Shown here: one piece after another, positions 1,138 through 56,742 of the stretch | Layout of the letters: each line of letters starts with the position of its first letter | Position numbering within the stretch: the stretch's first letter is position 1 | Origin: Pyrinomonadaceae bacterium | Lineage (GTDB): Bacteria > Acidobacteriota > Blastocatellia > Pyrinomonadales > Pyrinomonadaceae | DNA: 64,000 nucleotides | Assembly (NCBI GenBank): GCA_014380365.1 | Contig: JACMJZ010000024.1 | Coordinates: forward strand, 62,001-126,000 | Direction: 5' to 3' | Notes under the pieces: generated by a model | What the model was told of the DNA's origin: nothing | The model's database searches: none | Seen by the model: the letters and a program-made list of their open reading frames with translations, nothing else | Position numbers and translations under genes: made by a program

Positions 1138-1318
1138 TGGCGGATTGCTGCAACAAGAGTTGCGCGGTCGCCCCTTGGTAAAATGGCGGGAGCCTAAAGT
1201 TCAGTAAGCCTGACACCAGAGGCTTAAGAGTTACGCGCGAATATTACTCTACACGTCCGGCCTTTTCAATCGTCTCGGCTGGCAGGAAGTTGAGTAAAAG
1301 CGTGTTGCTAATCTCCGG

Positions 1319-1391
1319 GGCACTAGCCCGACCGTCAGGGAGGGCTCCAAGTTGAATTAATGAAGCCCTCCCTGACGGTCGGGCTAGTGCC
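1319..1391. repeat. REP-like palindrome, family B (perfect 28-bp inverted repeat)
   Basis: Left arm 1319-1346 and right arm 1364-1391 are perfect reverse complements around a 17-nt loop; the core is CCGACCGTCAGGGAGGGC. The same element with one arm mismatch recurs at 38718-38788. A half copy lies inside the acylase gene at 41869-41895, and a weaker match lies in the start of modA near 13502-13527. It sits between the kinase and the S55-like peptidase gene. Confidence 0.85.
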
Positions 1392-1432
1392 CCACATGGG
1401 TGACGCAAGAAAGCTGCGCGCCGCGTCTGGGC

Positions 1433-3494: not shown

Positions 3495-3622
3495 GGTAGT
3501 TGATCCCCCCGCCAGCCCTTACTTTCGTTGTGCGCAAAGTGTTAGCGACTCGCGTCTTAGGAATGCGCGAGCTTAGACGCGCCAACTACGAAAAACGTTC
3601 CCCTATAACCGCTCAGTGATTT

Positions 3623-3742
3623 ACTGGAACCGCGGGCGTCCCGCCCGCAACGCGCCGTCAGGCGCGCAATTCTGTCGTCGCTATGAAGAAACCCATTTTC
3701 GCGCAGGGCGCTCATTGCGGGCGGGACGCCCGCGGTTCCAGT
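3623..3742. repeat. REP doublet: perfect 28-bp inverted arms, RAYT-related family A
   Basis: ACTGGAACCGCGGGCGTCCC at the start of 3623-3650 is the exact reverse complement of the end of 3715-3742 (28 bp per arm), enclosing 64 nt with a further GCGCGC hairpin. The right half (GCGCTCATTGCGGGCGGGAC...) has the same layout as the repeats flanking the RAYT gene at 43662-43707 and 44345-44390, with G/C swapped for A/T at matching positions. This is the main content of the 441-bp gap 3413-3854; the rest holds only the promoter at 3466-3494. Confidence 0.85.
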
Positions 3743-3854
3743 GAAAAAGTAACCAGGTACGGCCAAAACCCTACTCACGGCGGTTTAGCTGCCTAGGTCG
3801 AGCGAGATTCTCCTGTTTCGCGATCTCCGCAACCGAGACTAAGATTCAACCCAC

Positions 3855-4537: not shown

Positions 4538-4572
4538 CCCCGGGGTCCCCGTGCGGGCAACCCGCGTGGGGT
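4538..4572. repeat. Partial GC-rich REP element, family C
   Basis: GACCCCGGGGTCCCCGTGCG and the following GGGCAACCCGCG resemble part of the 62-bp element at 12241-12302. It sits immediately upstream of the hydrolase start and creates a spurious upstream GTG start at 4551. Confidence 0.5.
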
Positions 4573-4583
4573 GGCTTCACACC

Positions 4584-12203: not shown

Positions 12204-12240
12204 AAGTTCACGTGGCGTGGGCATCCTGCCCATGATCCGT

Positions 12241-12302
12241 CACGGACGGGTCGAGCACCCCAGCGGGGCTGCCCCGCCGGGGACCCCGCACGCCCGTGCC
12301 AC
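12241..12302. repeat. GC-rich 62-bp REP element, family C
   Basis: The element is a compound palindrome with GGGGCTGCCCCGCCGGGGAC at its core. It matches 33145-33206 at 58 of 62 positions. It lies between the binding-protein and permease genes and touches the stop codon of the former, so a folded RNA here could set their relative expression. Confidence 0.85.
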
Positions 12303-13337
12303 TCACTTTCGTTGCACCTGGTCCCTGAATATCCCTTCAATGATTTCAGGGTAGGCTCTGTTCCACCCGCCAAAGTAGTCAATCGTAAACTCTGTCTCGA
12401 TCTGGGCGAGGTGCTTGTTTTCCTGGTTCAGCGTTGGATCGATTCCCGAACGGTAATGAAATTTAACGAACGCCTTTTGCGCCTCGTCGCTCCAGAGATA
12501 CTGCATAAACGCGTCCACTACCGGCCGCTTCGCTGCGGAAACGTTTCGGTCGATGACGACGGCAGGGTGTTCGCTGAAGATTGTGGCCTTGGGAATCACA
12601 ACCTCGAGCGGCGTTTTACCGGTTTCCTTCATCAGCAGGCCCTCGAGTTCGTAAGTCACCAGGGCGTCTCCGAAGCCGGTTTCAAACTGAGTACGGGCTT
12701 CGCGCGCCGATCCGGGGGTGGAAATAACGTTACGCCAGATAGCCCGCAGCGTTTGCAGCGCAAGCTCTTTATTCTGCCCGCCTGACTGCCTCTCTGACTT
12801 GACCAGCTCAGAACCGTACATCGCCAATACCGACCATTGCGCGCCCCCCGAACTAACAGGATCAGGATGAATCAAGCGCACGCCTGCTTTCGCAAGATCC
12901 GTAAAATCTAGTATCCCTTTCGGATTTCCCTGGCGCACCAGGATCACAAACGGTGTCTTATTCAAGATTCCCTTGTTCGGCAACGTGCGCCAGTCCGACG
13001 TGACAAACCCGCCGTCCTTAAGTCGGCTGGCGTCGCGCTCAATCGAGAGGATCGCGATATCGGCGCTGACACCCTGCAGGATCTGGTTGGTAATCGTTTC
13101 GGAACCGGCAAAAGACGATGTAAAGTTTACGTCGACGCCATGCTCGCGTTTCCACTTGGCAGCGAACCCGGGATAGACAGCCTTCTCCAGCGATTCCTTC
13201 ATGATCGAGAATCCGTACACGGTTATGTTCAGTCCGCCTTTGTCCGACGTTGGTTGCGGCAGGCAGCCGGCGATTAGAGCGAGCGAGGTCAAGGCCCCAC
13301 AAATCAAAGCCGGCCGGCTGAATATACGTTTTCGCAT
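12303..13337 (-). CDS. sbp: Sulfate/thiosulfate-binding lipoprotein of the ABC importer
   Basis: 344-residue periplasmic solute-binding lipoprotein. From ATG 13337 (AGGA upstream) a short signal ends in LIAGC with Cys25 as the lipidation site. Family features of Sbp/CysP follow: VYGFSIMKESLEKAVYPGF, SFAGSETITNQILQG, HPDPVSSGGAQWSVLAMYG and TYELEGLLM, which surround the oxyanion pocket. It is first in the operon with the single permease and CysA. Sulfate specificity is from family likeness, not from binding residues alone. Confidence 0.87.
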   Translation of the reverse strand: MRKRIFSRPALICGALTSLALIAGCLPQPTSDKGGLNITVYGFSIMKESLEKAVYPGFAAKWKREHGVDVNFTSSFAGSETITNQILQGVSADIAILSIERDASRLKDGGFVTSDWRTLPNKGILNKTPFVILVRQGNPKGILDFTDLAKAGVRLIHPDPVSSGGAQWSVLAMYGSELVKSERQSGGQNKELALQTLRAIWRNVISTPGSAREARTQFETGFGDALVTYELEGLLMKETGKTPLEVVIPKATIFSEHPAVVIDRNVSAAKRPVVDAFMQYLWSDEAQKAFVKFHYRSGIDPTLNQENKHLAQIETEFTIDYFGGWNRAYPEIIEGIFRDQVQRK

Positions 13338-20768: not shown

Positions 20769-21781
20769 GTGCAGACAAAGCCAAAACGGGCGGGCAAGAC
20801 GGCACCCCAGCCGGGCTGCCCGGCCGGGGACCCCGCGATGCCCGCGCTCCCGGGGTTATTGCCATCGTTGGCCCAACGGCCTCCGGCAAGAGCACGCTGG
20901 GAATCAAAGTCGCGTTGCGCCTCGGTGGAGAGATTATAAACTGCGACTCGGTTCAGGTTTACCAGGGGATTCAGATTGCAACCGCCAAAGTCCCGCTCGA
21001 AGAACGCGAAGGTATTCCACATCACTTGATTGATTTCGTGCCGCCGGAGATCAACTACACGGCGGGAGAGTGGGCACGCAAAGCCGAGACGAAGATCGAA
21101 GAAACAGAGAAGCGAGGTCGAGTACCCATCCTGGTTGGCGGTACAGGTCTCTACCTGCGCGCGTTGCGTAATCCCTTTTTCAAGAGTCCGCCGACAGACG
21201 AACAGCTGCGCCGCCGCATCAGCAGGCTTCGTGAACGGCACGGCCCCGAGCATCTTCATCGACTTTTACAGCGCCTCGATTCCGCCAGTGCGAAGGAACT
21301 CTATCCTCGCGATTGGCCTCGCGTGCAACGCGCAATCGAAGTTCGTTTGCAAACGGGTAGTCCAATGTCGCAGCAGAAAGTCAAACGGCCAAAGCCGCAT
21401 GAAAGTACACGTCGGCTTCGCGTTCTGGTGCTGGATCCTCCTCGCGCCGAGCTCTACACAAGAATCAACCAGCGAACGGAAGAACACTTTGCCGCCGGCC
21501 TCGTCGAGGAGGTTGAGCACCTATTGGCCGCGGGAGTGCCAGCCCAGTCGAATGCGCTGGGCGCGCACGGTTACCGGCGAGTAGTGGAATATCTCGAAGG
21601 GAAACGCGACCTGGCGAGCGCTATCGAACAAACAAAGGTCGACGTGCGTCGCTATTCGAAGCGGCAGTTGACATGGTTTCGGCGCGAGACGGGCGCCGAA
21701 TGGTTTGCAGGCTTTGGCGAGCAAACGCACATTCAGCACGCAGTTCTGGAAGCCATGAGTGTCCCGCCAGATAAGGCGTGA
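20765..21781 (+). CDS. miaA: tRNA dimethylallyltransferase
   Basis: Transfers the dimethylallyl group to N6 of A37 in tRNAs reading UNN codons. P-loop GPTASGKST, the substrate motif NCDSVQVYQGIQIATAKV, HHLIDF, GGTGLYLRAL and the C-terminal RRYSKRQLTWFR are all present. The N terminus is about 30 residues longer than usual: between the GTG start and the P-loop lies a family C repeat (20785-20847) read in frame as GTPAGLPGRGPRDARAPG. A later start inside the repeat is possible. Next gene is hfq, the same order as in many bacteria. Confidence 0.93.
   Translation: MSADKAKTGGQDGTPAGLPGRGPRDARAPGVIAIVGPTASGKSTLGIKVALRLGGEIINCDSVQVYQGIQIATAKVPLEEREGIPHHLIDFVPPEINYTAGEWARKAETKIEETEKRGRVPILVGGTGLYLRALRNPFFKSPPTDEQLRRRISRLRERHGPEHLHRLLQRLDSASAKELYPRDWPRVQRAIEVRLQTGSPMSQQKVKRPKPHESTRRLRVLVLDPPRAELYTRINQRTEEHFAAGLVEEVEHLLAAGVPAQSNALGAHGYRRVVEYLEGKRDLASAIEQTKVDVRRYSKRQLTWFRRETGAEWFAGFGEQTHIQHAVLEAMSVPPDKA
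20785..20847. repeat. Family C REP element inside the miaA N terminus
   Basis: CAGCCGGGCTGCCCGGCCGG and flanking bases mirror the compound palindrome of 12241-12302, with compensatory changes that keep the stems. It is in frame in the leader of miaA. Confidence 0.7.
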
Positions 21782-22544: not shown

Positions 22545-23204
22545 TTGGCGGGAACTTTCATTACTTTCGAAGGAATCGACGGCAGCGGCAAATCTACACA
22601 TCTCCGACTGCTCGCCGATTTTCTTCGGTCCGGGGGTCTGGATGTGGTGTTGACGCGCGAGCCAGGCGGCACGCCGGTGGGCAATCGTCTGCGGGCCGCG
22701 CTGCTGGATGCAAGCGAGGAAGTGGATCCACTGACCGAGCTCCTCGTGTTCGCGGCCGATCGCGCACAGCACGTGCGCCGCGTGTTACGGCCCGCGATCG
22801 AGGAAGGACGAGTGATCATTTCCGATCGTTACGCCGATGCCACCGTCGCCTATCAGGGTGCGGGACGCGGATTCTCCGCTGAGTTAATTTCGGAAATCAT
22901 TGCGTTGGCCACTGAAGGATTGCGACCCGAGCTGACCCTTCTTTTTAATCTCTCAGTCGCCGAATCAAACACGCGCACCCGGCGCAGAACCAACGGTCAG
23001 CAGGCGGGCGACAGGTTAGACGCGGAAACCGCTGAGTTTCATACGCGCGTTCGCGATGCCTATCTGCGGCTCGCAGAAACTGAGCCGGATCGCATAAAGG
23101 TCATCGAAACGAACCGTTCAGTCGAGGAAACTCAGGAGTGCGTCAGAAAGGTTATTGTCCCTTTCCTGATAGGTCGCGGGCATATCCGTAACGCAAACTG
23201 TTAG
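22545..23204 (+). CDS. tmk: Thymidylate kinase
   Basis: Phosphorylates dTMP to dTDP. P-loop FEGIDGSGKSTHLRLL (residues about 7-22), TREPGGTPVGNRLR with the DRY-type DRYADATVAYQGAGRG, and LLFNLSVAESNTRTRRR are classic. TTG 22545 preceded by GGGGAA is chosen as start: the longer reading from 22374 runs through an inverted repeat and adds 57 residues with no family likeness. 219 aa fits the family. Followed by holB, a frequent tmk partner. Confidence 0.92.
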   Translation: MAGTFITFEGIDGSGKSTHLRLLADFLRSGGLDVVLTREPGGTPVGNRLRAALLDASEEVDPLTELLVFAADRAQHVRRVLRPAIEEGRVIISDRYADATVAYQGAGRGFSAELISEIIALATEGLRPELTLLFNLSVAESNTRTRRRTNGQQAGDRLDAETAEFHTRVRDAYLRLAETEPDRIKVIETNRSVEETQECVRKVIVPFLIGRGHIRNANC

Positions 23205-23273
23205 TTTGCGAACTGTTCGCTACCACTCGGTTGAGGTTTGGCTGCCTTCGCAAACTCACAGTTTGCGTTACCA
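23188..23273. repeat. Inverted repeat around the tmk-holB junction
   Basis: GTAACGCAAACTGTTAGTTT at 23188-23207 is answered by CGCAAACTCACAGTTTGCGTTAC ending at 23272. It spans the tmk stop codon and ends just before the holB start. Confidence 0.7.
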
Positions 23274-26375: not shown

Positions 26376-28805
26376 CTATTTGGAAGAGCAGGTGTTGTCG
26401 GTAACGTTGCGGTCGGTAATCGTAAACGTTGCCTTCGGCGTAGTTGTCTGCACTGTCGCGTCTCCCGTTTTGGTGCAGGTATCAAGGCGACTAAAAACTC
26501 GACGGTCGGGCGCGTTGTGCGTCAGCACAATGACGCAACCCTTTCTTGCCATCGTGCCTGTCCCTGTTAGGCTGGTGCCACCCGCAGGCGCCGGGGGTGT
26601 GCCGCCGGGCGTGATGGTTCCACCTGATGGCGGCTGCCCAACCGGCTTGGGTGATGAGCCAGGGTTCGTGAAGATGTAGTCGCCGGTAAATGTATTCCAC
26701 TGGATTCCGGAGTGGCGATTCGAGTCGTCAGTTATGCAGACGTCAAACCGGTCAACAATAACGGTGGCTACTACGGTGAATGCGCCAGCCTGCTGGCCAG
26801 TGATTGCCCTGGTAGTCGTGTAAATTCCGTCTCGATTCACTTCGGTCGGAGTAATCCGCAGGTTTTGAAAGTTGCCGCCGTCCATGTTGATCACGCCGGT
26901 AGCGTCGAGCTGTAGCGGCACAGGTTCCGTGATCCCTTCCAGTCCGTTTACCTCGACCTTCAGCACGGTCTGTTCACCTCTCAGCAAGTTAGTCTTGGGC
27001 GCACTCAGATTCACACCGACGTTGCGATAGTTTCCGGTGGTTCTCGTGTTCCCTTCGGTCAGGTGAAGCTTGATCGGGCCGATTACATTGGCGGGCGCGG
27101 CGAAGACAGATTTGCGCGGTGACTCGGCAATTACGTCGAACCGGCCCATAGTGTCACGGTCTTCTCCATCGCTAACCCTGATGTCCGTATTCGCGGCGTT
27201 GCCATCGAACGGACCGGTTACGACGATGGGCCGCCCGGTCTGACCGACGGGCGGGAAGCTAAACGGCGGGTTCGTTATTTTCGGATCAGGTGTGATGATC
27301 GCGCCTGACGGGTGCGTCGGCTGCGTTATTTTCGGATCAGGCGTGATGATCGCGCCTGACGGGTGCGTGGGCTGCGTTATCTTCGGATCGGGCGTGATGA
27401 TCGCGCCTGACGGGTGCGTCGGCTGGGTTATTTTCGGATCGGGCGTGATGATCGCGCCCGAAGGATGCGTCGGCTGGGTTATTTTCGGATCGGGCGTGAT
27501 GATCGCGCCCGAAGGATGCGTCGGCTGCGTTATTTTCGGATCGGGCGTGATGATCGCGCCCGAAGGATGCGTCGGCTGCGTTATCTTCGGATCGGGCGTG
27601 ATGATCGCACCTGACGGTGTCATGCCTTCCCCAGCTTTGCGAATTTCGTCGAACATTTGACCGATCAGAATGTTAGTTCGCGCAAGGGTTTGGCCATCAC
27701 GGTCCATCACAGCAATCGGTACAGTGTTGTCTTTCCCTGTAATTGTCGTTGTATAGATCCAGAAAGTCTGTTGGATCACAGCCTCACGTTCTTTTTCGGG
27801 GCTCCCCGCAAACGGCTCCACACGCTTGCCATCGATTTCGATAGCCAAACTAAGGAGCACATTCTGATTCTTTGCGCGCTCCTCCGGCGTCTCTCCTTTC
27901 GGCTCGGTGATCACCGTTCCCGAAATCGTATCGCCTGCCCTGATGTCGTCCGGCAGTCTCACTATGACTCGGCCCTGAACAACCTTGAAGGTAACGGTAT
28001 TAAGGCCGTTAGCGGTTTTCGACTCGGCTGACTGGCCGTCACCCGGCGGGATGAAGTTACCTTTTTTGGGGGGCTCTTCTGTTTGGCGCGCGTCCTCCGC
28101 CAGTTTTATCAGTTTAAGCCGCTCTGCCAGGTCATCGAGCCGTTTCTTCCGCGGATTGGTTTCTGAGCCGCTTCCGGTCCGGGTGGCCTCATGGAGCAAT
28201 CGCCTGGCATCCCGAATCGCCTTTGCCGCGGCCCGACGTGCTGCCCGCGCTCGCTTCCGCTTGAGACGCGCCTTCTTCTCCAGGTCATTCTTCTTGTCCG
28301 CGTCGTCGGCCTTCTTGTCGGCTGCGTCCGCCTCTCTCTCTTTCTTGGCCGCATCTTCCTCGGCCTTCTTTGCAGCCTCAGCGGCGTCATCCGCCTCCTT
28401 CTTTTCATCAGCTGCTTTCTTGTTTCTCTCCTCGTTACTACCCCCAGCTTCTTTAGCATCCTTCGCGGCATCTTCAGCCTCAAGCTGCTCTTCCTGGGCT
28501 TTGTCCTGGGCCTCGTCTGCCTTCTCCGCGGCCTCGGCCGCAGCTTTTGCGGCATCGTCGGCTGCCTTGTCCTCCGGCGTTTGCTCCTTACCAGCCTTCT
28601 TTCCGGCCTCATCAGCAGCTTTTTGTGCCTCGGCAGCTTCCTTCGCAGCTTGCTCGGCCTGGGCCGTATCTGCCTCGGCTTTCTTGATGGCTTTTTCAGC
28701 CTCAGTGTCAGCGTGAACGAGAACCGGCAGGAAGCTGAACGCAGCGATGAACAACATCGCGGCACATGTAGCAGCCAGTAGACAGAATCTGATTGACGAT
28801 TTCAT
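26376..28805 (-). CDS. Secreted Ala/Lys/Glu coiled-coil protein with seven 17-aa repeats
   Basis: 809-residue exported protein. A signal peptide (about 1-32) is followed by a highly charged Ala/Glu/Lys/Asp stretch (residues 33-190), strongly predicted coiled coil, then a basic segment (KARLKRKRARAARRAAAKAI). Residues about 270-390 look globular (TFKVVQGRVIVRLPDDIRAG; a possible beta sandwich). Seven copies of a 17-residue unit SGAIITPDPKITQPTHP follow (about 394-511), then a C-terminal region of Ig-like or adhesin-like beta character ending in a Cys-containing tail. I recognise no family. The layout suggests a cell-surface or extracellular stalk protein. A 20-bp palindrome at 28881-28900 may control it. 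Confidence 0.8.
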   Translation of the reverse strand: MKSSIRFCLLAATCAAMLFIAAFSFLPVLVHADTEAEKAIKKAEADTAQAEQAAKEAAEAQKAADEAGKKAGKEQTPEDKAADDAAKAAAEAAEKADEAQDKAQEEQLEAEDAAKDAKEAGGSNEERNKKAADEKKEADDAAEAAKKAEEDAAKKEREADAADKKADDADKKNDLEKKARLKRKRARAARRAAAKAIRDARRLLHEATRTGSGSETNPRKKRLDDLAERLKLIKLAEDARQTEEPPKKGNFIPPGDGQSAESKTANGLNTVTFKVVQGRVIVRLPDDIRAGDTISGTVITEPKGETPEERAKNQNVLLSLAIEIDGKRVEPFAGSPEKEREAVIQQTFWIYTTTITGKDNTVPIAVMDRDGQTLARTNILIGQMFDEIRKAGEGMTPSGAIITPDPKITQPTHPSGAIITPDPKITQPTHPSGAIITPDPKITQPTHPSGAIITPDPKITQPTHPSGAIITPDPKITQPTHPSGAIITPDPKITQPTHPSGAIITPDPKITNPPFSFPPVGQTGRPIVVTGPFDGNAANTDIRVSDGEDRDTMGRFDVIAESPRKSVFAAPANVIGPIKLHLTEGNTRTTGNYRNVGVNLSAPKTNLLRGEQTVLKVEVNGLEGITEPVPLQLDATGVINMDGGNFQNLRITPTEVNRDGIYTTTRAITGQQAGAFTVVATVIVDRFDVCITDDSNRHSGIQWNTFTGDYIFTNPGSSPKPVGQPPSGGTITPGGTPPAPAGGTSLTGTGTMARKGCVIVLTHNAPDRRVFSRLDTCTKTGDATVQTTTPKATFTITDRNVTDNTCSSK
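27271..27625. repeat. Seven tandem 51-bp repeats in coding sequence
   Basis: The unit (GGATCAGGCGTGATGATCGC within it on the plus strand) recurs every 51 bp, exactly 17 codons. Copies fall into two subtypes, CCTGACGGGTG at one end and CCCGAAGGATG in the middle, which differ only by synonymous changes. That indicates recent expansion plus selection on the peptide. Confidence 0.92.
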
Positions 28806-33081: not shown

Positions 33082-33600
33082 TTACGCCGCTAACTTGATA
33101 ATTGCGTCTGCTTCCGCAGTGGCGCGCGCATCTTGCGCGTGGTTCACGGGCGAGCCGAGCACCCAAGCGGGGCTGCCCCGCCGGGGACCCCGCACGCCCG
33201 TGCCACTTTCGTAGGGGTTGAGCAGGTCAATTGCTTGCCCCTCGTCATTCTTATAGGAAGCGGAAATCACGCGCCAGGGCTTTCCATTGCGAAAGATTAA
33301 TTCAACCGTCGCGGTGACAGTCTTTCGTTCCCCAATCACCTTAAGACTTAACTGAGCCGTGCCGTCGCCACTATCTATATTGATGTTACCCGTCACCAGT
33401 TTGCCAAATTCCTTAACCTCGCCGATGTCTTGCTTGAGCAGCGCATTATTATTCAGAAACTCGCGGGATACGTTGGCCGCCTCGCTGTTCGAGATCCCGT
33501 AAAAGATCGAACCCACGATCCCGCCGACAAAAATAAGCACGATCAAACCCAGCACGACCACGATGGCTATAACCACTACAATTATTTTTTTGGTAGTCAT
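33082..33600 (-). CDS. Small membrane-anchored protein, Coa1-like, with repeat-derived tail
   Basis: 172 residues. One N-terminal membrane helix (about 6-32, very Val/Ile-rich) is followed by a soluble domain of about 100 residues (SREFLNNNALLKQDIGEVKEFGKLVTGN...), which resembles the Coa1/cystatin-like domains often found in membrane-anchored bacterial proteins. The family call is tentative. Residues about 132-160 (ESGTGVRGPRRGSPAWVLGS onward) are the translation of a family C REP element plus a second hairpin, so the C terminus is an insertion product. It sits 2 nt from cdsA and 1 nt from dxr inside an otherwise canonical cluster, so it is expressed with them. Confidence 0.7.
   Translation of the reverse strand: MTTKKIIVVVIAIVVVLGLIVLIFVGGIVGSIFYGISNSEAANVSREFLNNNALLKQDIGEVKEFGKLVTGNINIDSGDGTAQLSLKVIGERKTVTATVELIFRNGKPWRVISASYKNDEGQAIDLLNPYESGTGVRGPRRGSPAWVLGSPVNHAQDARATAEADAIIKLAA
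33145..33206. repeat. GC-rich 62-bp REP element, family C, inside a gene
   Basis: Differs from 12241-12302 at only 4 of 62 positions. It is read in frame as the C-terminal part of the Coa1-like protein; a second small hairpin (GCGCGCATCTTGCGCG) follows at 33122-33139. Confidence 0.85.
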
Positions 33601-38688: not shown

Positions 38689-38717
38689 ATCAAAATCCTA
38701 TTCGTTTGGGAAGAACC

Positions 38718-38788
38718 GGGCAGTGGCCCGACCGTCAGGGAGGGCGTCAACTAAGACAACGCCCTCCCTGACGGTCGGGCTACTGCCC
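38718..38788. repeat. REP-like palindrome, family B, second copy
   Basis: 28-bp arms 38718-38745 and 38761-38788 with one mismatch and a 15-nt loop; same core as 1319-1391. It separates the two VTT paralogues. Confidence 0.88.
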
Positions 38789-39397
38789 CGTACGCCACCT
38801 GTTAATTATCAGGTAAGCCAGCAGTGCCACGACGGCTGCGGCCGCCACCACACTCAGAATAAGCAACCCGTTGTCTTTCATGAACAAGATCACACGCTGT
38901 CCGTAATAAACCGCCAGGAGGCCTTCAACGTAATAGCGGAACGAACGGGCAATCATTACTGTCAGCAAAAACTTCCAGCGCGGATACTCGAGTGTGCCGG
39001 CAGTAGCGACGAATATCTTGAAGGGCAAAGGCGGCGGCAGGATCGCAGGAATCGCAATCGCCAACACTCCGAATCGTGCATATGCGCGCTCGACGCGTTC
39101 AATACTCTCCGGCTTAAACCGCTTTCGCAACACAGCCTGACCGCCGCGGCGCATGATCGAATAAAGCAGCCAACAACCCAAAACGGAACCCACCGCGGCG
39201 AAGAGCGGAAAGTAGAATACCGCGGTGGGATATTTGTAACACCGCCCCACCACGAGGTAGTCGTTGATCTCCGGCAGCGAGAGCAGAGATGAATCCAGGG
39301 CGCCAATCAGGACCATCGCCGGCGCAGCAATGTAAAGCGGCACACTGATTACATAGTGCTCCAGCCAACTGCCAACTGAACTTAACCAATCAAACAT
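38780..39397 (-). CDS. VTT-domain (DedA/YqaA-like) membrane protein 2
   Basis: 205-residue paralogue of the adjacent gene: LDSSLLSLPEINDYLVVG aligns with LDSSFVPLPSSADALMIL, and ILPPPLPFKIFVATAGTLEYPRWKF with LLPPPFPFKLFVISAGVFSF. The two arose by tandem duplication and have diverged widely. The stop region lies inside the family B palindrome. Confidence 0.8.
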   Translation of the reverse strand: MFDWLSSVGSWLEHYVISVPLYIAAPAMVLIGALDSSLLSLPEINDYLVVGRCYKYPTAVFYFPLFAAVGSVLGCWLLYSIMRRGGQAVLRKRFKPESIERVERAYARFGVLAIAIPAILPPPLPFKIFVATAGTLEYPRWKFLLTVMIARSFRYYVEGLLAVYYGQRVILFMKDNGLLILSVVAAAAVVALLAYLIINRWRTGQ

Positions 39398-41076: not shown

Positions 41077-41131
41077 CGCATATTTGCCTGTGCTACTATC
41101 GGCGCCAAATCAACTGCGAGGACACTGCTCC

Positions 41132-43621
41132 ATGAAACCTGGATTCGCCGCCCGACTGACGATCTTGCTGACGATCATATCGCTGCTGCTGTCAGCAACC
41201 GCTAGTTTGCCACCGGCCTACGCACAACAGACGTCACAACAGACGCCCCAGCCACCAAACAGCACAAGTTCAGTTCAGATATCAGGTCTGCGCGAACGCG
41301 TCACAGTCCGGCGTGACGAACGCGGTATTCCGTACATCGAAGCGAAGAATGACGAAGACTTGTATTTCGCGCAGGGGTATGTGACCGCCAGCGATCGGCT
41401 TTGGCAGATGGATCTCGGCCGTCGCAGCGCGCGTGGCGAATTAGCGGAGGTCTTGGGAAACCTGGCGTTGGACGAGGACAAACGTCACCGGCGCTTTGGA
41501 TTTGCGCAGGTGGCGGAAAGCGAAGTTGCGCAGTCGGCTCCCCGCGATCGAAAGATGCTTGAAGCGTATGCTTCGGGCGTCAACGCCTACATCGCCTCGC
41601 TCGACGCGAAGAGTCTGCCGCCGGAGTTTCAAATTCTCCAATACAAACCGAAGGTCTGGACTGCCGCCGACTCACTGGTTATTCCCAAGCTCTTCTTCGA
41701 GACTCTCTCCACGAGCTGGCGTCTCGACGTGATGCGGGAGGCGCTCGCGGATTTGCCGCCAGAGAAGTTGGCTGGACTGCTCCCAGTGCGCTCCCCGCTT
41801 GATGTTCTGGTAGTTGGTAGTGACAGGAAACCATCCCGTAAGAAGGTGGCTGGAAGGGAAACTTTAGAGGCCCTCCCTCACGGTCGGGCTTCTGCTTGGG
41901 ATTCAGCTGCGGCTGCCGCAACGATGAAGGCGCTGGCCGATGACGAAGCAATTGAGTCGCGCTCCCTCGCGCGGGTCGGCCTTTATGCCGAAGCCCTGGC
42001 GGCGAGTAACAACTGGGTAGTCAGCGGCAAACGCACACGTTCCGGCAAGCCGCTACTCGCCAACGATCCACATCTTGCACCGTCAGCGCCACCAATCTGG
42101 TACATGGTTCATCTGAGCGCGCCCGGGATTCGAGTCGCCGGCGTGACTGCCGGTGGGATTCCCGGCGTAGTTATCGGCCATAACGAGCGGATCGCGTGGG
42201 GCTTCACCAACGTCGGTCCGGATGTGCAGGATCTTTACGTCGAGAAGTTTGACCCGAACAATCCGGGACGCTACCAGACGCCCACGGGCTGGCGAGACGC
42301 CGACGTGCGCCGTGAGCAGATCAAGGTGCGCAAAGACTTTCTCAGGACCGCTACCGACACAGTGGAACTCGATGTGACGGTGACACGCCATGGTCCGATC
42401 ATCTATGAAAACGCCGGCAAGCGTTACGCGCTGCGCTGGACTGCCCTCGATCCAAAACTTAACAAAGGGACGGGTCTTGATGCCCTGAACCGGGCCGGCA
42501 ACTGGAAGGAGTTTACCAGCGCGATCAGCCAGTACACGGGCGCCACGCAGAACATGGTCTATGCCGACGTCGACGGGCATATCGGGTACTACGCCGCCGG
42601 GGTGATCCCGATTCGTGCCTCGGGTGACGGCAGCCTGCCCTACGATGGCTCGACGGATGCCGGAGAATGGTCCCGCTTTATCCCATTCAAGGAACTGCCC
42701 CATCTTTACGACCCGCCGTCCGGCATCATCATCACCGCCAATCAGAGAATTGTTGGCGACAGCTATCCACACTTCCTGACGCACTCGTGGGCTCAGCCTT
42801 ATCGGGCCAGACGAATTTCGGATTTGCTGAATAAGAAGCCAAAGCTGACGGCGGAAGACTTTCGCGCGGTGCTGGGAGATGTCCATTCTATAGCGGGAAT
42901 GATTTTCAATCGGAAAGCTGCAAACATTTTGCGGCGCCAGTTAACGCCGGCGACCGAGGACAACCTGCGTAAGGCAATTGTTGCGATGGACGGCTGGGAC
43001 GGACGACTCAACGCCGAGTCAACCGTGGCGCCCCTCATCACACAGATGCGCATCGCCTTTCGTACGCGCATCATCAACGCGGCTGTGGGCACTGAGTTGG
43101 CAAAGTCGTTTGGCTGGTCAAACTTCGACACCACTCTCGATCGCATCCTGTCGGAACAATCCGCGGACTGGTTGCCTAAGGAGTTTAAGAGCTACGGCGA
43201 ACTGTTGCGCGTCTGTCATGAGGACGCGCGCAAAGCGCTGATCAAGAGCCTCGGCGAGGATGAATCGAAGTGGACCTGGGGCAACATGGTCAAGTCGCGT
43301 TTCCCTCACCCGTTGTCGTCGGCGCCGCTCGTGGGAATGCAGTTTACTATTCCCCCGTTCCCGCAAAACGGGACACCCTTCATGCTCGGCGCCACAGTTA
43401 ATGTCGGTGCTTCCGTCTCGATGCGGCTCATCGCAGATCCGGGTGACTGGGACAAGACTCAGCACGGAATCACGCTCGGTGAGTCGGGCCTTCCGTCGAG
43501 TCCTCACTGGAAAGATCAACTCGACGACTGGCGCGCCGTCACCCCCCGAGCGTTTCCCTTCAGCGAGGCCGCAATCGCAAAAGCGACCAGAGAAGTGGTC
43601 ATAATGGAGCCAAGGAATTAA
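41132..43621 (+). CDS. Penicillin-acylase family N-terminal-nucleophile hydrolase
   Basis: 829-residue periplasmic precursor. A signal peptide (about 1-31, ending AYA-Q) is followed by an alpha chain (RRDERGIPYIEAKNDEDLYFAQGYVTASDRLWQMDLGRR is the family start) and a spacer of about 40 residues. The beta-chain start is at SNNWVVSGKRT: autocleavage before Ser292 would free the catalytic N-terminal serine. GKPLLANDPHLAPSAPPIWYMVHL follows, as in acyl-homoserine-lactone and beta-lactam acylases. The spacer carries a family B repeat half (41869-41895, read as EALPHGRASA) just before the cleavage site. Substrate could be AHL signals, penicillins or lipopeptides. Confidence 0.9.
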   Translation: MKPGFAARLTILLTIISLLLSATASLPPAYAQQTSQQTPQPPNSTSSVQISGLRERVTVRRDERGIPYIEAKNDEDLYFAQGYVTASDRLWQMDLGRRSARGELAEVLGNLALDEDKRHRRFGFAQVAESEVAQSAPRDRKMLEAYASGVNAYIASLDAKSLPPEFQILQYKPKVWTAADSLVIPKLFFETLSTSWRLDVMREALADLPPEKLAGLLPVRSPLDVLVVGSDRKPSRKKVAGRETLEALPHGRASAWDSAAAAATMKALADDEAIESRSLARVGLYAEALAASNNWVVSGKRTRSGKPLLANDPHLAPSAPPIWYMVHLSAPGIRVAGVTAGGIPGVVIGHNERIAWGFTNVGPDVQDLYVEKFDPNNPGRYQTPTGWRDADVRREQIKVRKDFLRTATDTVELDVTVTRHGPIIYENAGKRYALRWTALDPKLNKGTGLDALNRAGNWKEFTSAISQYTGATQNMVYADVDGHIGYYAAGVIPIRASGDGSLPYDGSTDAGEWSRFIPFKELPHLYDPPSGIIITANQRIVGDSYPHFLTHSWAQPYRARRISDLLNKKPKLTAEDFRAVLGDVHSIAGMIFNRKAANILRRQLTPATEDNLRKAIVAMDGWDGRLNAESTVAPLITQMRIAFRTRIINAAVGTELAKSFGWSNFDTTLDRILSEQSADWLPKEFKSYGELLRVCHEDARKALIKSLGEDESKWTWGNMVKSRFPHPLSSAPLVGMQFTIPPFPQNGTPFMLGATVNVGASVSMRLIADPGDWDKTQHGITLGESGLPSSPHWKDQLDDWRAVTPRAFPFSEAAIAKATREVVIMEPRN
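41869..41895. repeat. Half copy of family B palindrome inside the acylase gene
   Basis: GGCCCTCCCTCACGGTCGGG and the next bases match the right arm of 1364-1391 with few changes. It encodes EALPHGRASA in the alpha-beta spacer. Confidence 0.7.
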
Positions 43622-43661: not shown

Positions 43662-44390
43662 GCTGGGAGCGCAGGCATCCTGCCTGCAATGAGCGCGAAG
43701 CGCGAACAGTTTTTTCTTCACAGATGCGCGACCAGAAACATCCTTACGGACCCGACGGCTGGCACAGCCGCGGTTACCTGCCGCATTTCGACGGCGGAGA
43801 AATTCCCCAATTCATCACCTTCCGCCTGGCAGACTCCATGCCGCAACAATTGTTGCAACGGTGGCGCGCTGAGCTGAGCAACGAACAGAACATTGACATT
43901 GATGCCGCTTTACGTAGGCGCATAGAGAATTATCTGGATCAAGGATATGGCGAGTGCCACCTAAGTAACTCGGGCATCGATGAGTTGTTGCAGAATGCAT
44001 TCCTATTCTTCGACGGCCATCGCTACCGGCTGACAGCATGGGTCATCATGCCGAACCACACCCACCTCTTGATGACTCCCTGCGCGGGCTATGAGTTATC
44101 TAGCGTCTTGCACTCGCTCAAGTCTTTTACAGCTAACGAAGCAAATAAGCTCTTATGTCGTAAAGGCCAGTTCTGGCAGCCGGAATCGTTCGATCGATGG
44201 ATTCGTGACGCCGATCATTTTGAAAAGGTGATTAGTTATATTGAAAATAACCCGGTGAAAGCACGGTTGTGTGCTAAAGCGGAAGACTGGCCGTTTAGCA
44301 GTGCATGGTTTAGGAAGCGAGACAAGAAGTAAACACCAGAAGAAGTTCGCGCTTCGCGCTCATTGCAGGCAGGATGCCTGCGCTCCCAGC
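43662..44390. mobile_element. RAYT unit: transposase gene flanked by perfect 46-bp inverted REPs
   Basis: Left repeat 43662-43707 and right repeat 44345-44390 are exact reverse complements over 46 bp. Each contains the palindrome GCAGGCATCCTGCCTGC and an outer GCGCGAAGCGCG hairpin. The gene at 43724-44332 lies between them, so the whole is a REP-RAYT unit rather than a classical insertion sequence. Confidence 0.88.
43724..44332 (+). CDS. REP-associated tyrosine transposase (TnpA_REP, Y1/IS200-like)
   Basis: 202-residue single-domain HUH nuclease that cuts and rejoins single-stranded REP DNA. The HUH motif is VIMPNHTHLLM, and the catalytic tyrosine is expected in the helix VISYIENNPVKARLC. 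The N terminus GGEIPQFITFRLADSMP, the FFDGHRYRLTAW segment and QSFDRWIRD-like ESFDRWIRD are TnpA_REP hallmarks. No zinc or IS200 dimer partner gene is present. It starts 16 bp after the left REP. Confidence 0.93.
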   Translation: MRDQKHPYGPDGWHSRGYLPHFDGGEIPQFITFRLADSMPQQLLQRWRAELSNEQNIDIDAALRRRIENYLDQGYGECHLSNSGIDELLQNAFLFFDGHRYRLTAWVIMPNHTHLLMTPCAGYELSSVLHSLKSFTANEANKLLCRKGQFWQPESFDRWIRDADHFEKVISYIENNPVKARLCAKAEDWPFSSAWFRKRDKK

Positions 44391-44424: not shown

Positions 44425-45054
44425 ATGAATGAAGGCAGCAAAAACACGTGGCGTGTCTTCAGCGCCATTGACTTACCCGAGCCTGTGCGCGCGCTGGTTG
44501 GGCAACACATTTCCGCCTTACGGCGCGCCGTGCCGGAAGGCCGCGCCAGCTGGAGCCGGCCGGAGGGTATTCATTTGACGCTCAAGTTTCTCGGGCACAT
44601 ACCCATCGCCGACGTCGGGAAATTTAGCAGCGCAGTGGGACGTGCTGTTGAAAGCATGCCGCCGTTCAGGCTGGGGATTGGAGGCACGGGCACCTTTCCG
44701 CCACACGGTTCGACACGAGTCTTATGGATTGGCGTTCACGATTCTTCAGGCAGGTTGGCGGAGTTACACGAGCGGCTGGAAGCCGAATCGGCGGCAGCGG
44801 GATTCGAAAGGGAGACGCGTTCCTTCCATCCACATCTCACGCTCGCAAGATTGCGCCAACACGATCGGCGGATGGAACGTGGTGACAATACTCAGCAAGC
44901 GCGCTTCTTAACCGCAGCCCACAAAGAGGCGCTGTTCCCAACGGTGGAGATCACAGTTTCTGAGTTGTTTGTGATTCGAAGCGAACTCGGTAGCGCAGGA
45001 TCGAAATATACAGTGATTTCGCGGCACCGTCTCGACGGTCCCGACAACCTTTGA
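44425..45054 (+). CDS. thpR: RNA 2',3'-cyclic phosphodiesterase (2H family)
   Basis: 209-residue cytoplasmic enzyme that opens 2',3'-cyclic phosphates or joins 2'-5' ends. The two HxTx catalytic motifs are HLTLKFLGH and HPHLTLARL. RVFSAIDLPEPVRALV marks the N-terminal strand. Ends 22 bp from the convergent stomatin gene, so the two may share terminator function. Confidence 0.93.
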   Translation: MNEGSKNTWRVFSAIDLPEPVRALVGQHISALRRAVPEGRASWSRPEGIHLTLKFLGHIPIADVGKFSSAVGRAVESMPPFRLGIGGTGTFPPHGSTRVLWIGVHDSSGRLAELHERLEAESAAAGFERETRSFHPHLTLARLRQHDRRMERGDNTQQARFLTAAHKEALFPTVEITVSELFVIRSELGSAGSKYTVISRHRLDGPDNL

Positions 45055-53763: not shown

Positions 53764-56742
53764 ATGTCCCCAAAAAACCATCGCCGAATCTCCGTTCGCC
53801 ATCGTTTTCTTTATTCTTGCTCAGTGCTAGTGCTGATGCTGTTAGTCGTCATCGGTTTAACTCTACCGGTGCGGAAGGCCGCGGTTTCCGCCGAGCAAGA
53901 CGCCGTGATCGCAAGAAAAGCTCGGTTGCAAGAAAGCTACGGCAAGCTGCCCCTCAGCTTTGAGGCTAATCAGGGCCAGACTGACGGCTCAGTCAAGTTT
54001 CTGTCTCGCGGTAGCGGCTACAGCCTTTTCCTGACCTCAACCGAAGCAGTACTTCGGCTGCGCACTGTAGATGACGAAGCGCGGAATGAAGGCAAAGACA
54101 CTCTTGCTGCCTTCTCGACTAAATCCAGAGACTCCAAGTCGCAGGCGCTCCGGATGAAGTTTGCCGGCGCCAACCCCGCGCCTCAAGTGGTTGGAGCGGA
54201 AGAGCTGCCGGGCAAGGTCAACTACCTCATCGGCAACGACAGCTCCAAATGGAGGCACAACGTTCCAACGTATTCCAAGGTTGCGTATTCCGGCGTGTAT
54301 CCGGGTGTGGACCTTGTTTACTACGGCAACCAGGGCGAGCTCGAATACGATTTTATCGTCAGTCCCGGGGCCGATCACCGAGTCATCGCGGTTGATATCC
54401 AGGGTGCGGACAGCGCGTCCATCGACGCCCAGGGCGACCTCGTGCTGCAAATAGGCGAGCATGAGGTGCGCCAGCGGAGACCTATCGTCTATCAGGAGGT
54501 GCGTGGCGTCAAAAAAGAGATCACATCCAGCTACACGCTAACGAACCAGCATCTTGTCGGCTTCGAGATTTCGAGCTACGACAAAACGCAGCCGCTGGTG
54601 ATCGATCCGGTGTTGGAATACTCAACCTACCTGGGCGGGAGTGACTTCGACCTCGGCCAGGGCATCGCCGTGGACGCTGCCGGGAACGCATATGTGACCG
54701 GCCTTACTTTCTCCAGCGATTTCCCCACCACTCCCGGCGCGTACGACACCACCTGGAACACCCATAGCAATGACGTGTTCGTGACGAAGCTGAATGCCGC
54801 AGGTACAAACGTAGTGTACTCGACGTTCCTGGGCGGGAGTGGCGACGAAACCGGAGAAGCAATCCGGGTGGACGCAACTGGGAACGCGTTCGTAACCGGC
54901 TCAACCCCCTCGAGCGATTTTCCCACCACTCCTGGCGCGTACGACACTATTTGGAATAGCAGTCACGACGCCTTCGTGACGAAACTTGATGCATCGGGCG
55001 CCAACCTGTTGTACTCGACCTACCTGGGCGGAAGTGATCATGACTTCCCGCTGGGCATTGCGATAGACGTGGCCGGAAACGCATTTGTGGGCGGTTACAC
55101 CGATTCCGCCAATTTTCCCACCTCGGCCGGCGCGTTCGACACGAGTTGGAACGGCAGAGAAGCGTTCGTGACGAAGCTTGATGCCGCGGGTGCTAACCTG
55201 GCCTACTCGACTTACCTGGGCGGAACCAATGAGGACATGGGTACCGGCATTGCGATAGACGGAGCCGGCAGCGCGTATGTAACCGGCTTTACTTTCTCCA
55301 GCGATTTTCCCACCACCGCCGGCGCTTACGACACGACTCGGGAGGCCTTTCACGATGCGTTCGTGACGAAGCTGGATGCCGCGGGTGCCAGCCTGTCTTA
55401 CTCGACGTATCTGGGTGGGAATAATACCGACGCTTCCCAGGACATTGCCGTAGACGCGAGCGGGAGCGCGTATGTTACCGGCTACACGGACTCCACCAAT
55501 TTTCCCACCACCCTCGGCGCATATGACACGAGCTGGAACGGCGGCGACTTGGATGTGTTCGTTACAAAGCTGAATGTCGCAGGTTCCAGCCTGGCTTACT
55601 CGACTTATCTGGGTGGAAACAGTGCCGACTTCACTCAAGGCATTGCTGTGGATATAACCGGAAGCGCGTACGTGGCGGGCCATACCTTCTCCAGTGATTT
55701 TCCCACCACGGCCGGTGCTTACGACACGAGTTGGAACAACAGCGGCGACGCGATCGTGACAAAGTTTTCCCCGACGGGCAGTTCCCTCTCACAATCGACC
55801 TTTCTGGGCGGAACTGGCGACGACGTCGGCGTTGGCATCGCGGTGAACGCGAGTGGGGACGCGTATGTGGTCGGCTATACATTCTCCAACGATTTTCCGA
55901 CCACCCTTGGCGCTTACGATACAACGCTTAGCGCGCGCGCGGATGCGTTTGTAACCAAACTTACCACCGCGTGCTTGCTCGACAGCGATTGTGACGGGGT
56001 ACCCAACGGTTCGGATAATTGTCCTGGCGTAGCAAACCCCGATCAAGCCGACGCCGACAGCGATGGCCAGGGCGACGCCTGCGATGCGTGTCCGGCAGAT
56101 CTTGCCAACGACGCAGATGGCGACCGTGTCTGCGGCAACGTGGACAACTGCCCTGGCGTAGCGAACCCCAACCAAATGGACACGGACGGGGATGGCATTG
56201 GCGACGCCTGTGATAATGCGTGTCCGGGAGGTCCTGGCAATGACGCGGATGGCGACGGAGTTGGCAACACCTGCGACAACTGTCCGTTCGTCGCTAATCC
56301 CGATCAGCTCGACACCGACGGCGATGGCGTGGGCGACGTTTGCACGCCTTATCAGAGTCCGGAAGGTGGCCAGTTCGTGATTGGCGACTTGGCCAACATG
56401 GCTGGTGGTGTCACGGTAAACTTCTGGGGTTCACAGTGGCAGAAGAACAACCCGATGAGCGGGGGCGCGGGTCCGAACGCCTTCAAGGGCTTCGAGAACG
56501 GGAACACGCTGCCGGCCTGCGGTAGCACGTGGACCAGCCAACCCGGTAACAGCTCGAATCCGCCGGCGACGATACCGCCATACATGTCGGTGATCATATC
56601 CAGTTCTGTGCAGAAGAACGGGTCGGTCATCACGGGGAACGTGAAGCGGATCGTCATCGTCAAGACCGATCCTGGCTACGGACCATCGCCCGGACAATGG
56701 GGCACTGGCCAAGTGGTGGCGGTCCTCTGCACCGCCCCCTAA
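53764..56742 (+). CDS. Secreted SBBP beta-propeller protein with thrombospondin-3 repeats
   Basis: 992-residue exported protein. A basic N terminus and one hydrophobic segment (about 15-38) act as signal or anchor. Residues about 60-280 form the DUF7948-type domain (LSFEANQGQTDGSVKFLSRG). Roughly seven SBBP repeats follow (units such as YLGGSDFDLGQGIAVDAAGNAYVTGLTFSSDFPTTPGAYDT), which together should make a beta propeller. Then four TSP3-like calcium repeats (DTDGDGIGDACDN type) occur at about 735-860. The last 130 residues are a Cys-containing beta domain. Likely an extracellular adhesin or matrix protein. ATG 53764 begins after an AAAGG site. Many such proteins occur in acidobacteria. Confidence 0.88.
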   Translation: MSPKNHRRISVRHRFLYSCSVLVLMLLVVIGLTLPVRKAAVSAEQDAVIARKARLQESYGKLPLSFEANQGQTDGSVKFLSRGSGYSLFLTSTEAVLRLRTVDDEARNEGKDTLAAFSTKSRDSKSQALRMKFAGANPAPQVVGAEELPGKVNYLIGNDSSKWRHNVPTYSKVAYSGVYPGVDLVYYGNQGELEYDFIVSPGADHRVIAVDIQGADSASIDAQGDLVLQIGEHEVRQRRPIVYQEVRGVKKEITSSYTLTNQHLVGFEISSYDKTQPLVIDPVLEYSTYLGGSDFDLGQGIAVDAAGNAYVTGLTFSSDFPTTPGAYDTTWNTHSNDVFVTKLNAAGTNVVYSTFLGGSGDETGEAIRVDATGNAFVTGSTPSSDFPTTPGAYDTIWNSSHDAFVTKLDASGANLLYSTYLGGSDHDFPLGIAIDVAGNAFVGGYTDSANFPTSAGAFDTSWNGREAFVTKLDAAGANLAYSTYLGGTNEDMGTGIAIDGAGSAYVTGFTFSSDFPTTAGAYDTTREAFHDAFVTKLDAAGASLSYSTYLGGNNTDASQDIAVDASGSAYVTGYTDSTNFPTTLGAYDTSWNGGDLDVFVTKLNVAGSSLAYSTYLGGNSADFTQGIAVDITGSAYVAGHTFSSDFPTTAGAYDTSWNNSGDAIVTKFSPTGSSLSQSTFLGGTGDDVGVGIAVNASGDAYVVGYTFSNDFPTTLGAYDTTLSARADAFVTKLTTACLLDSDCDGVPNGSDNCPGVANPDQADADSDGQGDACDACPADLANDADGDRVCGNVDNCPGVANPNQMDTDGDGIGDACDNACPGGPGNDADGDGVGNTCDNCPFVANPDQLDTDGDGVGDVCTPYQSPEGGQFVIGDLANMAGGVTVNFWGSQWQKNNPMSGGAGPNAFKGFENGNTLPACGSTWTSQPGNSSNPPATIPPYMSVIISSSVQKNGSVITGNVKRIVIVKTDPGYGPSPGQWGTGQVVAVLCTAP

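What the first reader, a model, noticed from the sequence alone, without database searches (positions are those of the whole stretch)
43662..44390. RAYT gene framed by perfect 46-bp inverted REPs
The flanks are exact reverse complements over 46 bp and contain the palindrome GCAGGCATCCTGCCTGC. A related doublet with covarying bases lies at 3623-3742, 40 kb away, so this transposase probably disperses its own REP family.
Basis: partly seen in the sequence, partly recalled or inferred. Interest (0 to 1): 0.6.

Follow-up and report, generated by a model that had tools for sequence, protein, structure and literature searches.

The report
Transposase gene framed by matching repeats
A gene for a DNA-nicking enzyme sits between two mirror-image copies of a short hairpin repeat that is scattered through its genome, and relatives show that each version of the gene goes with its own version of the repeat and that the gene can be found flipped in place between its repeats.

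Summary
Confirmed. The 46-bp arms at 43662-43707 and 44345-44390 are perfect reverse complements around a RAYT (REP-associated tyrosine transposase) gene, 43724-44332. The repeat is a real dispersed family: 33 exact 20-mer copies in the 4.98-Mb genome, no hit in 76 of 80 family genomes. So this is a REPtron, a known kind, here in an Acidobacteriota genome (probably Pyrinomonadaceae).

Three things go beyond the textbook. (1) The REP tag is GGAG (mostly G[G/T]A[G/A/C]C across the clade), not the GT[A/G]G that defines canonical REPs. (2) Tag base 2 follows RAYT residues 29 and 158; residue 158 aligns with H101 of E. coli RayT, reported to contact the tag. The residue-29 prediction, written beforehand, held on new loci; a second prediction, for tag base 4, failed. 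(3) The acylase-ThpR gap holding the RAYT is empty in 8 same-genus genomes, and two other RAYT cassettes are inverted in place between their REPs. What inversion does, if anything, is unknown.

The parts
43662..43707 (+). left REP: CT at 43663-43664, tag GGAG 43666-43669, main hairpin 43671-43687, small inner hairpin 43693-43703
   Evidence: positions read
43724..44332 (+). RAYT (REP-associated tyrosine transposase, Y1 HUH), 202 aa; H112-x-H114, Y172, Y---NP signature
44345..44390 (-). right REP in inverted orientation: tag 44383-44386 (minus strand), main hairpin 44365-44381
   Evidence: positions read
3620..3745 (.). inverted REP doublet (REPIN) of a sister REP family, core GCGGGCGTCCCGCCCGC; no cognate RAYT found in this genome
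43622..44424 (.). 803-bp gap between the flanking acylase-like gene (41084-43621) and ThpR-like gene (44425-45054) that holds the REP-RAYT-REP unit; -19 to 167 bp in 8 same-genus genomes
   Evidence: gene names are recalled, not tested

Best explanation
This is a REPtron: a single-copy RAYT gene between two inverted copies of its cognate REP, with the same REP dispersed over the genome as solitary copies and inverted doublets. Most likely mechanism: the RAYT binds the folded single-stranded REP through its GGAG tag and hairpin, nicks at the CT dinucleotide that marks the tag side of the copies, and in this way amplifies REPs or doublets (nicking and amplification are inferred from the studied E. 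coli, Stenotrophomonas and Marinomonas systems, not shown here). Shown here: the dispersed family, the match between RAYT and REP family among relatives, the unusual tag, and the absence of the RAYT at this site in 8 same-genus genomes. Inferred: that the REP-RAYT-REP segment arrived as one piece.
For: RAYT identity. Own REP: 33 exact 20-mer copies here; 5, 1 and 1 in three others, 0 in 76, of 80 family genomes. Reciprocal: sister 26-mer 22 copies in G004, 9 in G012, 1 each in G006 and G000, 0 in 76 of 80; G004 and G012 RAYTs are flanked by that family, and G006 holds only a RAYT fragment on the same contig as its copy. Framing is general: 84 of 109 RAYT loci have inverted flanks scoring 18 or more, 0 of 109 after shuffling (L118 is an artefact of an N run, and some loci are one record held twice). 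De novo motif search finds G[G/T]A[G/A/C]C directly before the GC-based stem (5.75 against 1.93-1.95 nats per locus in 10 shuffles). Own copies are sharply bounded: 34 of 35 contexts read CTGGGAGC before the hairpin, with little conservation beyond the base just 5' of it. Empty acylase-ThpR gap in 8 same-genus genomes.
Against: No movement has been observed; copy number and co-occurrence do not prove mobilisation. REP copies are few (33) compared with the more than 100 per genome that Nunvar 2010 calls usual (abstract start). The tag differs from the defining GT[A/G]G. The guide-code model of Corneloup 2021 (bases 3 and 4 choose the cleavage dinucleotide) predicts a change when base 4 is C, yet the GGAC family keeps CT at its boundary (33 of 34 contexts in G004), so either CT is not the cut site or the code does not carry over.
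Confidence: 0.85

Rival explanations
1. The window's RAYT also dispersed the 3623-3742 doublet: one RAYT with two REP variants.
For: Shared GCGCTCATTGC inner segment and the same layout; RAYTs can serve more than one REP variant (Quentin 2018, passages).
Against: Only 4 of the 44 own-genome hits to the generic pattern have the GGG core; in G004 27 of 27 and in G012 10 of 10 do, where the cognate RAYT has that core on its own flanks.
Confidence: 0.12
2. The REP-RAYT-REP segment is an autonomous IS-like transposon that moves as a whole, as in IS200/IS605.
For: The site is empty in 8 same-genus genomes, and the 803-bp gap is close to the 729-bp REP-to-REP unit plus short spacers; the RAYT is patchy (58 of 145 relatives).
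Against: One copy only: the next RAYT match in the genome is 42% identical. Most RAYTs that have a near relative sit at the same locus in it: 27 synteny groups, of which several are one record held twice. [quoted passage not shown]
Confidence: 0.25
3. The two in-place inversions are assembly errors at inverted repeats, not biology.
For: Most relatives are probably metagenome assemblies, and inverted repeats can mislead assemblers.
Against: The arms of L155 and L162 carry 3 and 4 mismatches, which reads can resolve; the flipped state in G070 stands against four loci from three other genomes that agree with each other; L155 is flipped against L162, L152 and L173 (two of these three on one flank only).
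Confidence: 0.15
4. The RAYT is a domesticated housekeeping enzyme and the REPs are kept for host uses (terminator, mRNA end, gyrase site), with little mobility today.
For: Single copy, long-lived at fixed loci in several relatives.
Against: Copies match the RAYT present in each genome rather than the species lineage; 10 of 16 same-genus genomes show no match to this RAYT.
Confidence: 0.25

Closest known systems
REPtron / RAYT (TnpAREP) of E. coli K-12, rayT b0228
   Same: HUH-Y1 enzyme, inverted REPs on both sides, W-Q...R tag-contact motif (W94, Q95, R104 aligned); tagged hairpin repeats dispersed.
   Different: E. coli tag GTAG and hairpins with a bulge (literature); here GGAG, perfect 7-bp stem with TCC loop and a second small hairpin. 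Residue 101 is H in E. coli and R here; residue 29 here is Q, W14 in E. coli.
Short-palindrome REPs of Pseudomonas and Stenotrophomonas (subclass 2.5 of Quentin 2018, group 3 of Bertels 2017 as cited there)
   Same: Short perfect palindromes, tag 1-2 nt from the stem, several RAYTs with their own REPs in one genome (passages read).
   Different: Their tag is GT[A/G]G; here G[G/T]A[G/A/C] with 1 nt C before the stem. Subclass membership not tested with their sequences.
Class 3 TnpA-Y1 of Acidobacteria and Planctomycetes (Quentin 2018)
   Same: Phyla; hairpins with a non-GTAG tetranucleotide at the foot.
   Different: Class 3 has foot CnGA and Y----Q; here GGAG and Y---NP (Y172 I E N N P).
TIRYT / TIRtrons of Acidobacteria (Di Nocera 2013)
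   Same: Y1 gene between long inverted repeats in Acidobacteria.
   Different: TIRs there share GGGGWSAS and mostly lack a REP hairpin; here a tagged hairpin and no such motif in the arms (read).

Membership tests
REPtron / RAYT (TnpAREP, class 2) | Y1 HUH transposase of the REP-associated type | tested here: met
   NF047646 88.3 bits, cut-off 80; PF01797 above cut-off; catalytic residues aligned to E. coli RayT
REPtron / RAYT (TnpAREP, class 2) | Y---NP signature | tested here: met
   Y172-I-E-N-N-P in the sequence; Y172 aligns with Y115 of E. coli
REPtron / RAYT (TnpAREP, class 2) | gene framed by REPs in inverted orientation | tested here: met
   clade-wide
REPtron / RAYT (TnpAREP, class 2) | the flanking palindrome is dispersed in the genome, copy number following RAYT presence | tested here: met
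   moderate numbers (33 exact 20-mers)
REPtron / RAYT (TnpAREP, class 2) | 5' tetranucleotide GT[A/G]G at the REP foot | tested here: not met
   tag is GGAG; in the clade GGAGC 53, GGAAC 17, GGACC 8, GTAGC 6 of the 100 loci (of 119 tried) with a parsed tag; confirmed without assuming a tag. It is filed as a variant for this reason
REPtron / RAYT (TnpAREP, class 2) | cleaves single-stranded REP | not testable with these tools
   needs protein
IS200/IS605 insertion sequence | several near-identical copies of the transposase in a genome | tested here: not met
   one copy; next RAYT match 42%
TIRYT | GGGGWSAS motif in the inverted repeats | tested here: not met
   absent from the 46-bp arms (read)
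Class 3 TnpA-Y1 | Y----Q signature and CnGA foot | tested here: not met
   Y---NP and GGAG

The most novel reading that the evidence does not exclude
In this RAYT clade the inverted REPs act as working recombination sites that flip the RAYT gene in place, an inverton-like cassette that could switch its expression, and the REP tag is read by a simple protein code in which residue 29 (Q or not) and residue 158 (R or H) choose tag base 2 (G or T). Neither was found in the papers read or in the three searches made on inversion.
Probability: 0.3. Interest if true: 0.7.

Novelty: new variant of a known kind. Interest (0 to 1): 0.5.

Why it matters
REPs are among the commonest repeats of bacteria, but how a RAYT recognises its own REP and how the pair stays together are open. 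A clade with a changed and changing tag is a natural mutagenesis experiment: it names residues 29 and 158 as tag readers that can be swapped and assayed, and it offers GGAC-tagged REPs that keep CT at their edge, which is at odds with a simple guide code. In-place inversion, if confirmed, would be a cheap way to keep the two arms matched and perhaps to switch the gene.

Tried and rejected
Doublet as a product of this RAYT: rejected as the simplest reading. Autonomous IS: not favoured (one copy). Loop-tag pairing (GGA of the tag with TCC of the loop): looked at by eye, not consistent (loops such as GCC, ACT, CTC occur). Guide code A3N4: the GGAC and GGAG families both keep CT at the boundary, so not supported in its simple form. 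Tag base 4 read by Q152: strong in training (Q with G in 50 of 55, non-Q with G in 12 of 33) but the prediction written beforehand failed on new loci: Q with G in 8 of 10, non-Q with G in 9 of 14, p 0.65. A version made after seeing the data (tag AG against anything else) gives p 0.003 and counts only as a lead. Phylogenetic pair tests had too few informative pairs to reach significance for either residue, so all residue-tag statements rest on raw association plus the hold-out. First comparison of flanks of near-identical RAYTs wrongly suggested unrelated sites for L155/L162 and L150/L151; one search showed that the flanks match with the cassette flipped. My notebook says 15 loci were dropped for lack of arms; the listing gives 17, plus 13 duplicates and 2 short flanks. 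My notebook also undercounts the non-Q152 hold-out set by one locus; one search is right.

Full report
Observation. The arms 43662-43707 and 44345-44390 are exact reverse complements over 46 nt. They enclose an ORF of 202 aa, 43724-44332, which is a RAYT by NCBIfam (88.3 bits, cut-off 80), by Pfam Y1_Tnp and by its match to E. coli TnpA-REP 4er8. The HUH pair H112/H114 and tyrosine Y172 align with H59, H61 and Y115 of E. coli RayT. The window is part of a 4.98-Mb genome in 34 contigs. The nearest named relatives of the RAYT come mostly from Blastocatellia and Pyrinomonadaceae of the Acidobacteriota, so the host is probably one of these; the genome itself is unnamed.

The repeat is a genomic family. 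The 25-mer of the arm occurs 23 times in the genome and the reversed control never; a looser pattern gives 33; the 20-mer core with head gives 33 exact copies. Read with the tag first, 34 of 35 copy contexts have CTGGGAGC directly before the hairpin GCAGGCATCCTGCCTGC (the other is two bases shorter), followed in most by AATGAGCGC, a short variable loop and GCGCGAAC, which folds into a second small hairpin. Conservation stops sharply one base 5' of the CT. Some copies are solitary, some are inverted doublets about 90 bp apart.

Copy number follows the RAYT. In 80 genomes of the family the own 20-mer has 33 copies here, 5 in G020 (whose RAYT L170 has a one-base variant on its flanks), 1 in G058, 1 in G074, and none in the other 76. 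The sister 26-mer has 22 copies in G004, 9 in G012, 1 in G006, 1 in the own genome and none in the other 76. The RAYTs of G004 and G012 (L155, L162) are flanked by that sister REP. In the genus scan of 16 genomes with a generic pattern, G000 has 44 hits (33 own type, 4 of the sister core, 7 intermediate), G004 27 and G012 10 (all sister core), G010 8, G002 3, G006 2, G001 and G015 1 each, the other 8 none (6 of the 16 have a RAYT match, one of them, G013, with zero hits here). This reproduces in Acidobacteriota what Nunvar 2010 (PMC2817692, abstract and passages seen) reported for gammaproteobacteria.

The doublet at 3620-3745 has the sister core and reads CTGGAACC where the sister family reads CTGGGACC. 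The own genome holds 4 copies with that exact core in the generic scan, 2 of which are this doublet, and the only other match to the RAYT query in it is 42% identical and carries GTAG-tagged REPs (L058). The doublet is therefore most simply a leftover of the sister system, not evidence for this RAYT's activity.

The tag. Of the remaining 119, 75 have a tag G[G/T][A/T]NC directly before the stem on both arms, 25 on one arm and 19 on none; with shuffled flanks both arms parse in 41 of 2380. In 59 of the 75 both tags point outward, in 15 inward, in 1 mixed. A motif search that assumed no tag, on the 79 of 119 loci with a shared hairpin, found the same motif. By locus the tags are GGAGC 53, GGAAC 17, GGACC 8, GTAGC 6 and rarer forms; three loci have GGTAC, and new loci from one genus have GGTGC. 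The papers read define REPs by GT[A/G]G (Nunvar 2010, Nunvar 2013, Di Nocera 2013, Quentin 2018; passages and named sections seen). The word GGAG is absent from the two texts searched for it by find (Di Nocera 2013 and Nunvar 2010) and from Nunvar 2013; a search for RAYT, Acidobacteria and GGAG found no paper with both RAYT and GGAG. Supplements were not open to me, so a mention there cannot be excluded.

Tag and protein. On a tree of 92 RAYTs tag base 2 changes 3 times (12.4 expected on shuffled labels, 0 of 500 as low) and base 4 changes 18 times. Residue 29 is Q in 75 of 77 G-tag and 1 of 13 T-tag loci with a residue there; residue 158 is R in 77 of 79 G-tag and H in 10 of 13 T-tag loci. 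E. coli RayT, with tag GTAG, has W at the first and H101 at the second; H101 is one of the tag-contact residues named by Quentin 2018. Against a strict code, Quentin 2018 also says that H101 is sometimes R in subclasses whose tags are GT[A/G]G. I wrote predictions down before fetching new loci. Hold-out: 51 loci from other genomes, 39 with arms, 10 of these with no parsed tag and 1 with discordant arms. Residue 29: Q goes with G in 18 of 18, non-Q with T in 7 of 10, p 0.0001; without the 3 loci that repeat training proteins, 16 of 16 and 7 of 10, p 0.0002. Residue 158: R with G in 19 of 22, non-R with T in 4 of 6, p 0.02. The prediction for tag base 4 and Q152 failed. Phylogenetic pair tests were too weak to confirm either: on supported branches only 3 independent pairs differ in base 2. 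The association is therefore real in counts but may reflect few events.

Cleavage site. Corneloup 2021 (PMC8266576; sections 17, 20 and part of 23 read) shows CT cleavage for two systems and CT or CA for a third, with bases 3 and 4 of the tag choosing CT. The CT at the edge of all own copies fits. But the sister family, with GGAC and a few GGAT tags, keeps CT too (33 of 34 have C and 34 of 34 T at these positions in G004), where the simple code would predict another dinucleotide. Either CT is conserved for another reason or the code differs here.

Site history. In 8 same-genus genomes in which the acylase-like and ThpR-like genes are both in the fetched locus they are adjacent, with gaps of 29, 4, 3, -19, 99, 110, -16 and 167 bp, against 803 bp here (12 of 16 genomes had a ThpR match; of these one is the own genome and three gave loci without the acylase match). 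The REP-to-REP unit is 729 bp. So the RAYT with its REPs is an addition at this site or was lost in the others; whether it came in one step is inferred.

In-place inversion. L155 and L162 (88% identical RAYTs in two same-genus genomes) have collinear flanks but a RAYT in opposite direction: identity inside the cassette is 0.28-0.45 per 40 columns in most windows as it stands and 0.68-1.0 after turning the block in the script, with edges at the REPs. In a second group L151 (G070) is flipped, with both flanks matched, against L150, L218 and L217/L273 (the last two are one locus fetched twice), which agree with each other. That is 2 of 27 synteny groups, several of which are one record held twice, so the true denominator is smaller. 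The left REP of L162 also has its hairpin core reversed. Homologous recombination across the inverted arms is the simplest cause; action of the RAYT itself is possible. Searches for RAYT or REPtron with inversion found no report in the held library; preprints and most subscription papers are not held, and Bertels 2017 and Messing 2012 could not be read.

Wider genome. Nine Y1 transposase hits lie in this genome. In seven of them, this RAYT included, an inverted match of 13 to 40 bases was found across the gene's flanks (the finder's ceiling was 40); L058 showed 10 bases there but clear hairpins; L056 showed none. The palindromes differ from gene to gene. No chance level was computed for these. 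The window itself carries repeats matching the flanks of L062.

Verdict. A well-supported REPtron, ordinary in plan, unusual in tag, with two leads worth a bench test: residues that read the tag, and cassette inversion.

Noticed in passing
window 1316-1393, 38715-38791, 41848-41895: Another inverted-doublet family (GCCCGACCGTCAGGGAGGGC) that matches the flanks of a different Y1 transposase gene of the same genome, L062; folds into a near-perfect long hairpin (first site).
   Followed up: partly
window 23188-23271: Inverted doublet GTAACGCAAACTGTTAGTTTGCGAA, close to the palindrome flanking RAYT-like locus L214 of G004.
   Followed up: no
window 4541-4578, 12240-12303, 20798-20836, 33144-33207: A further GC-rich palindromic repeat family (GCACCCCAGCGGGGCTGCCCCGCCGGGGACCCCGC) with no transposase assigned.
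   Followed up: no
L054-L062 (own genome): Nine Y1 transposase hits in one genome, most framed by inverted palindromes of their own.
   Followed up: partly
L162, left REP, contig strand about 1426-1470: The hairpin core of one REP is reversed relative to the other copies, as if the palindrome had flipped within the arm.
   Followed up: partly
L216 (G010:C280) and L206, L218: RAYT reading frames found in two pieces, suggesting frameshifts or decay; four of the eight generic REP hits of G010 lie around its broken RAYT.
   Followed up: no
window 54574-55939, 27213-27668, 56013-56346: In-frame-like tandem repeats of about 195, 51 and 130 nt; the last looks like calcium-binding thrombospondin-type repeats by recall, not tested.
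   Followed up: no
own-genome doublets L001, L005, L015: Doublets pair two different inner segments, AAACGCGAG-GCTCGCGAA on the left and AATGAGCGC-GCGCGAAC on the right, while both RAYT arms carry the second type.
   Followed up: no
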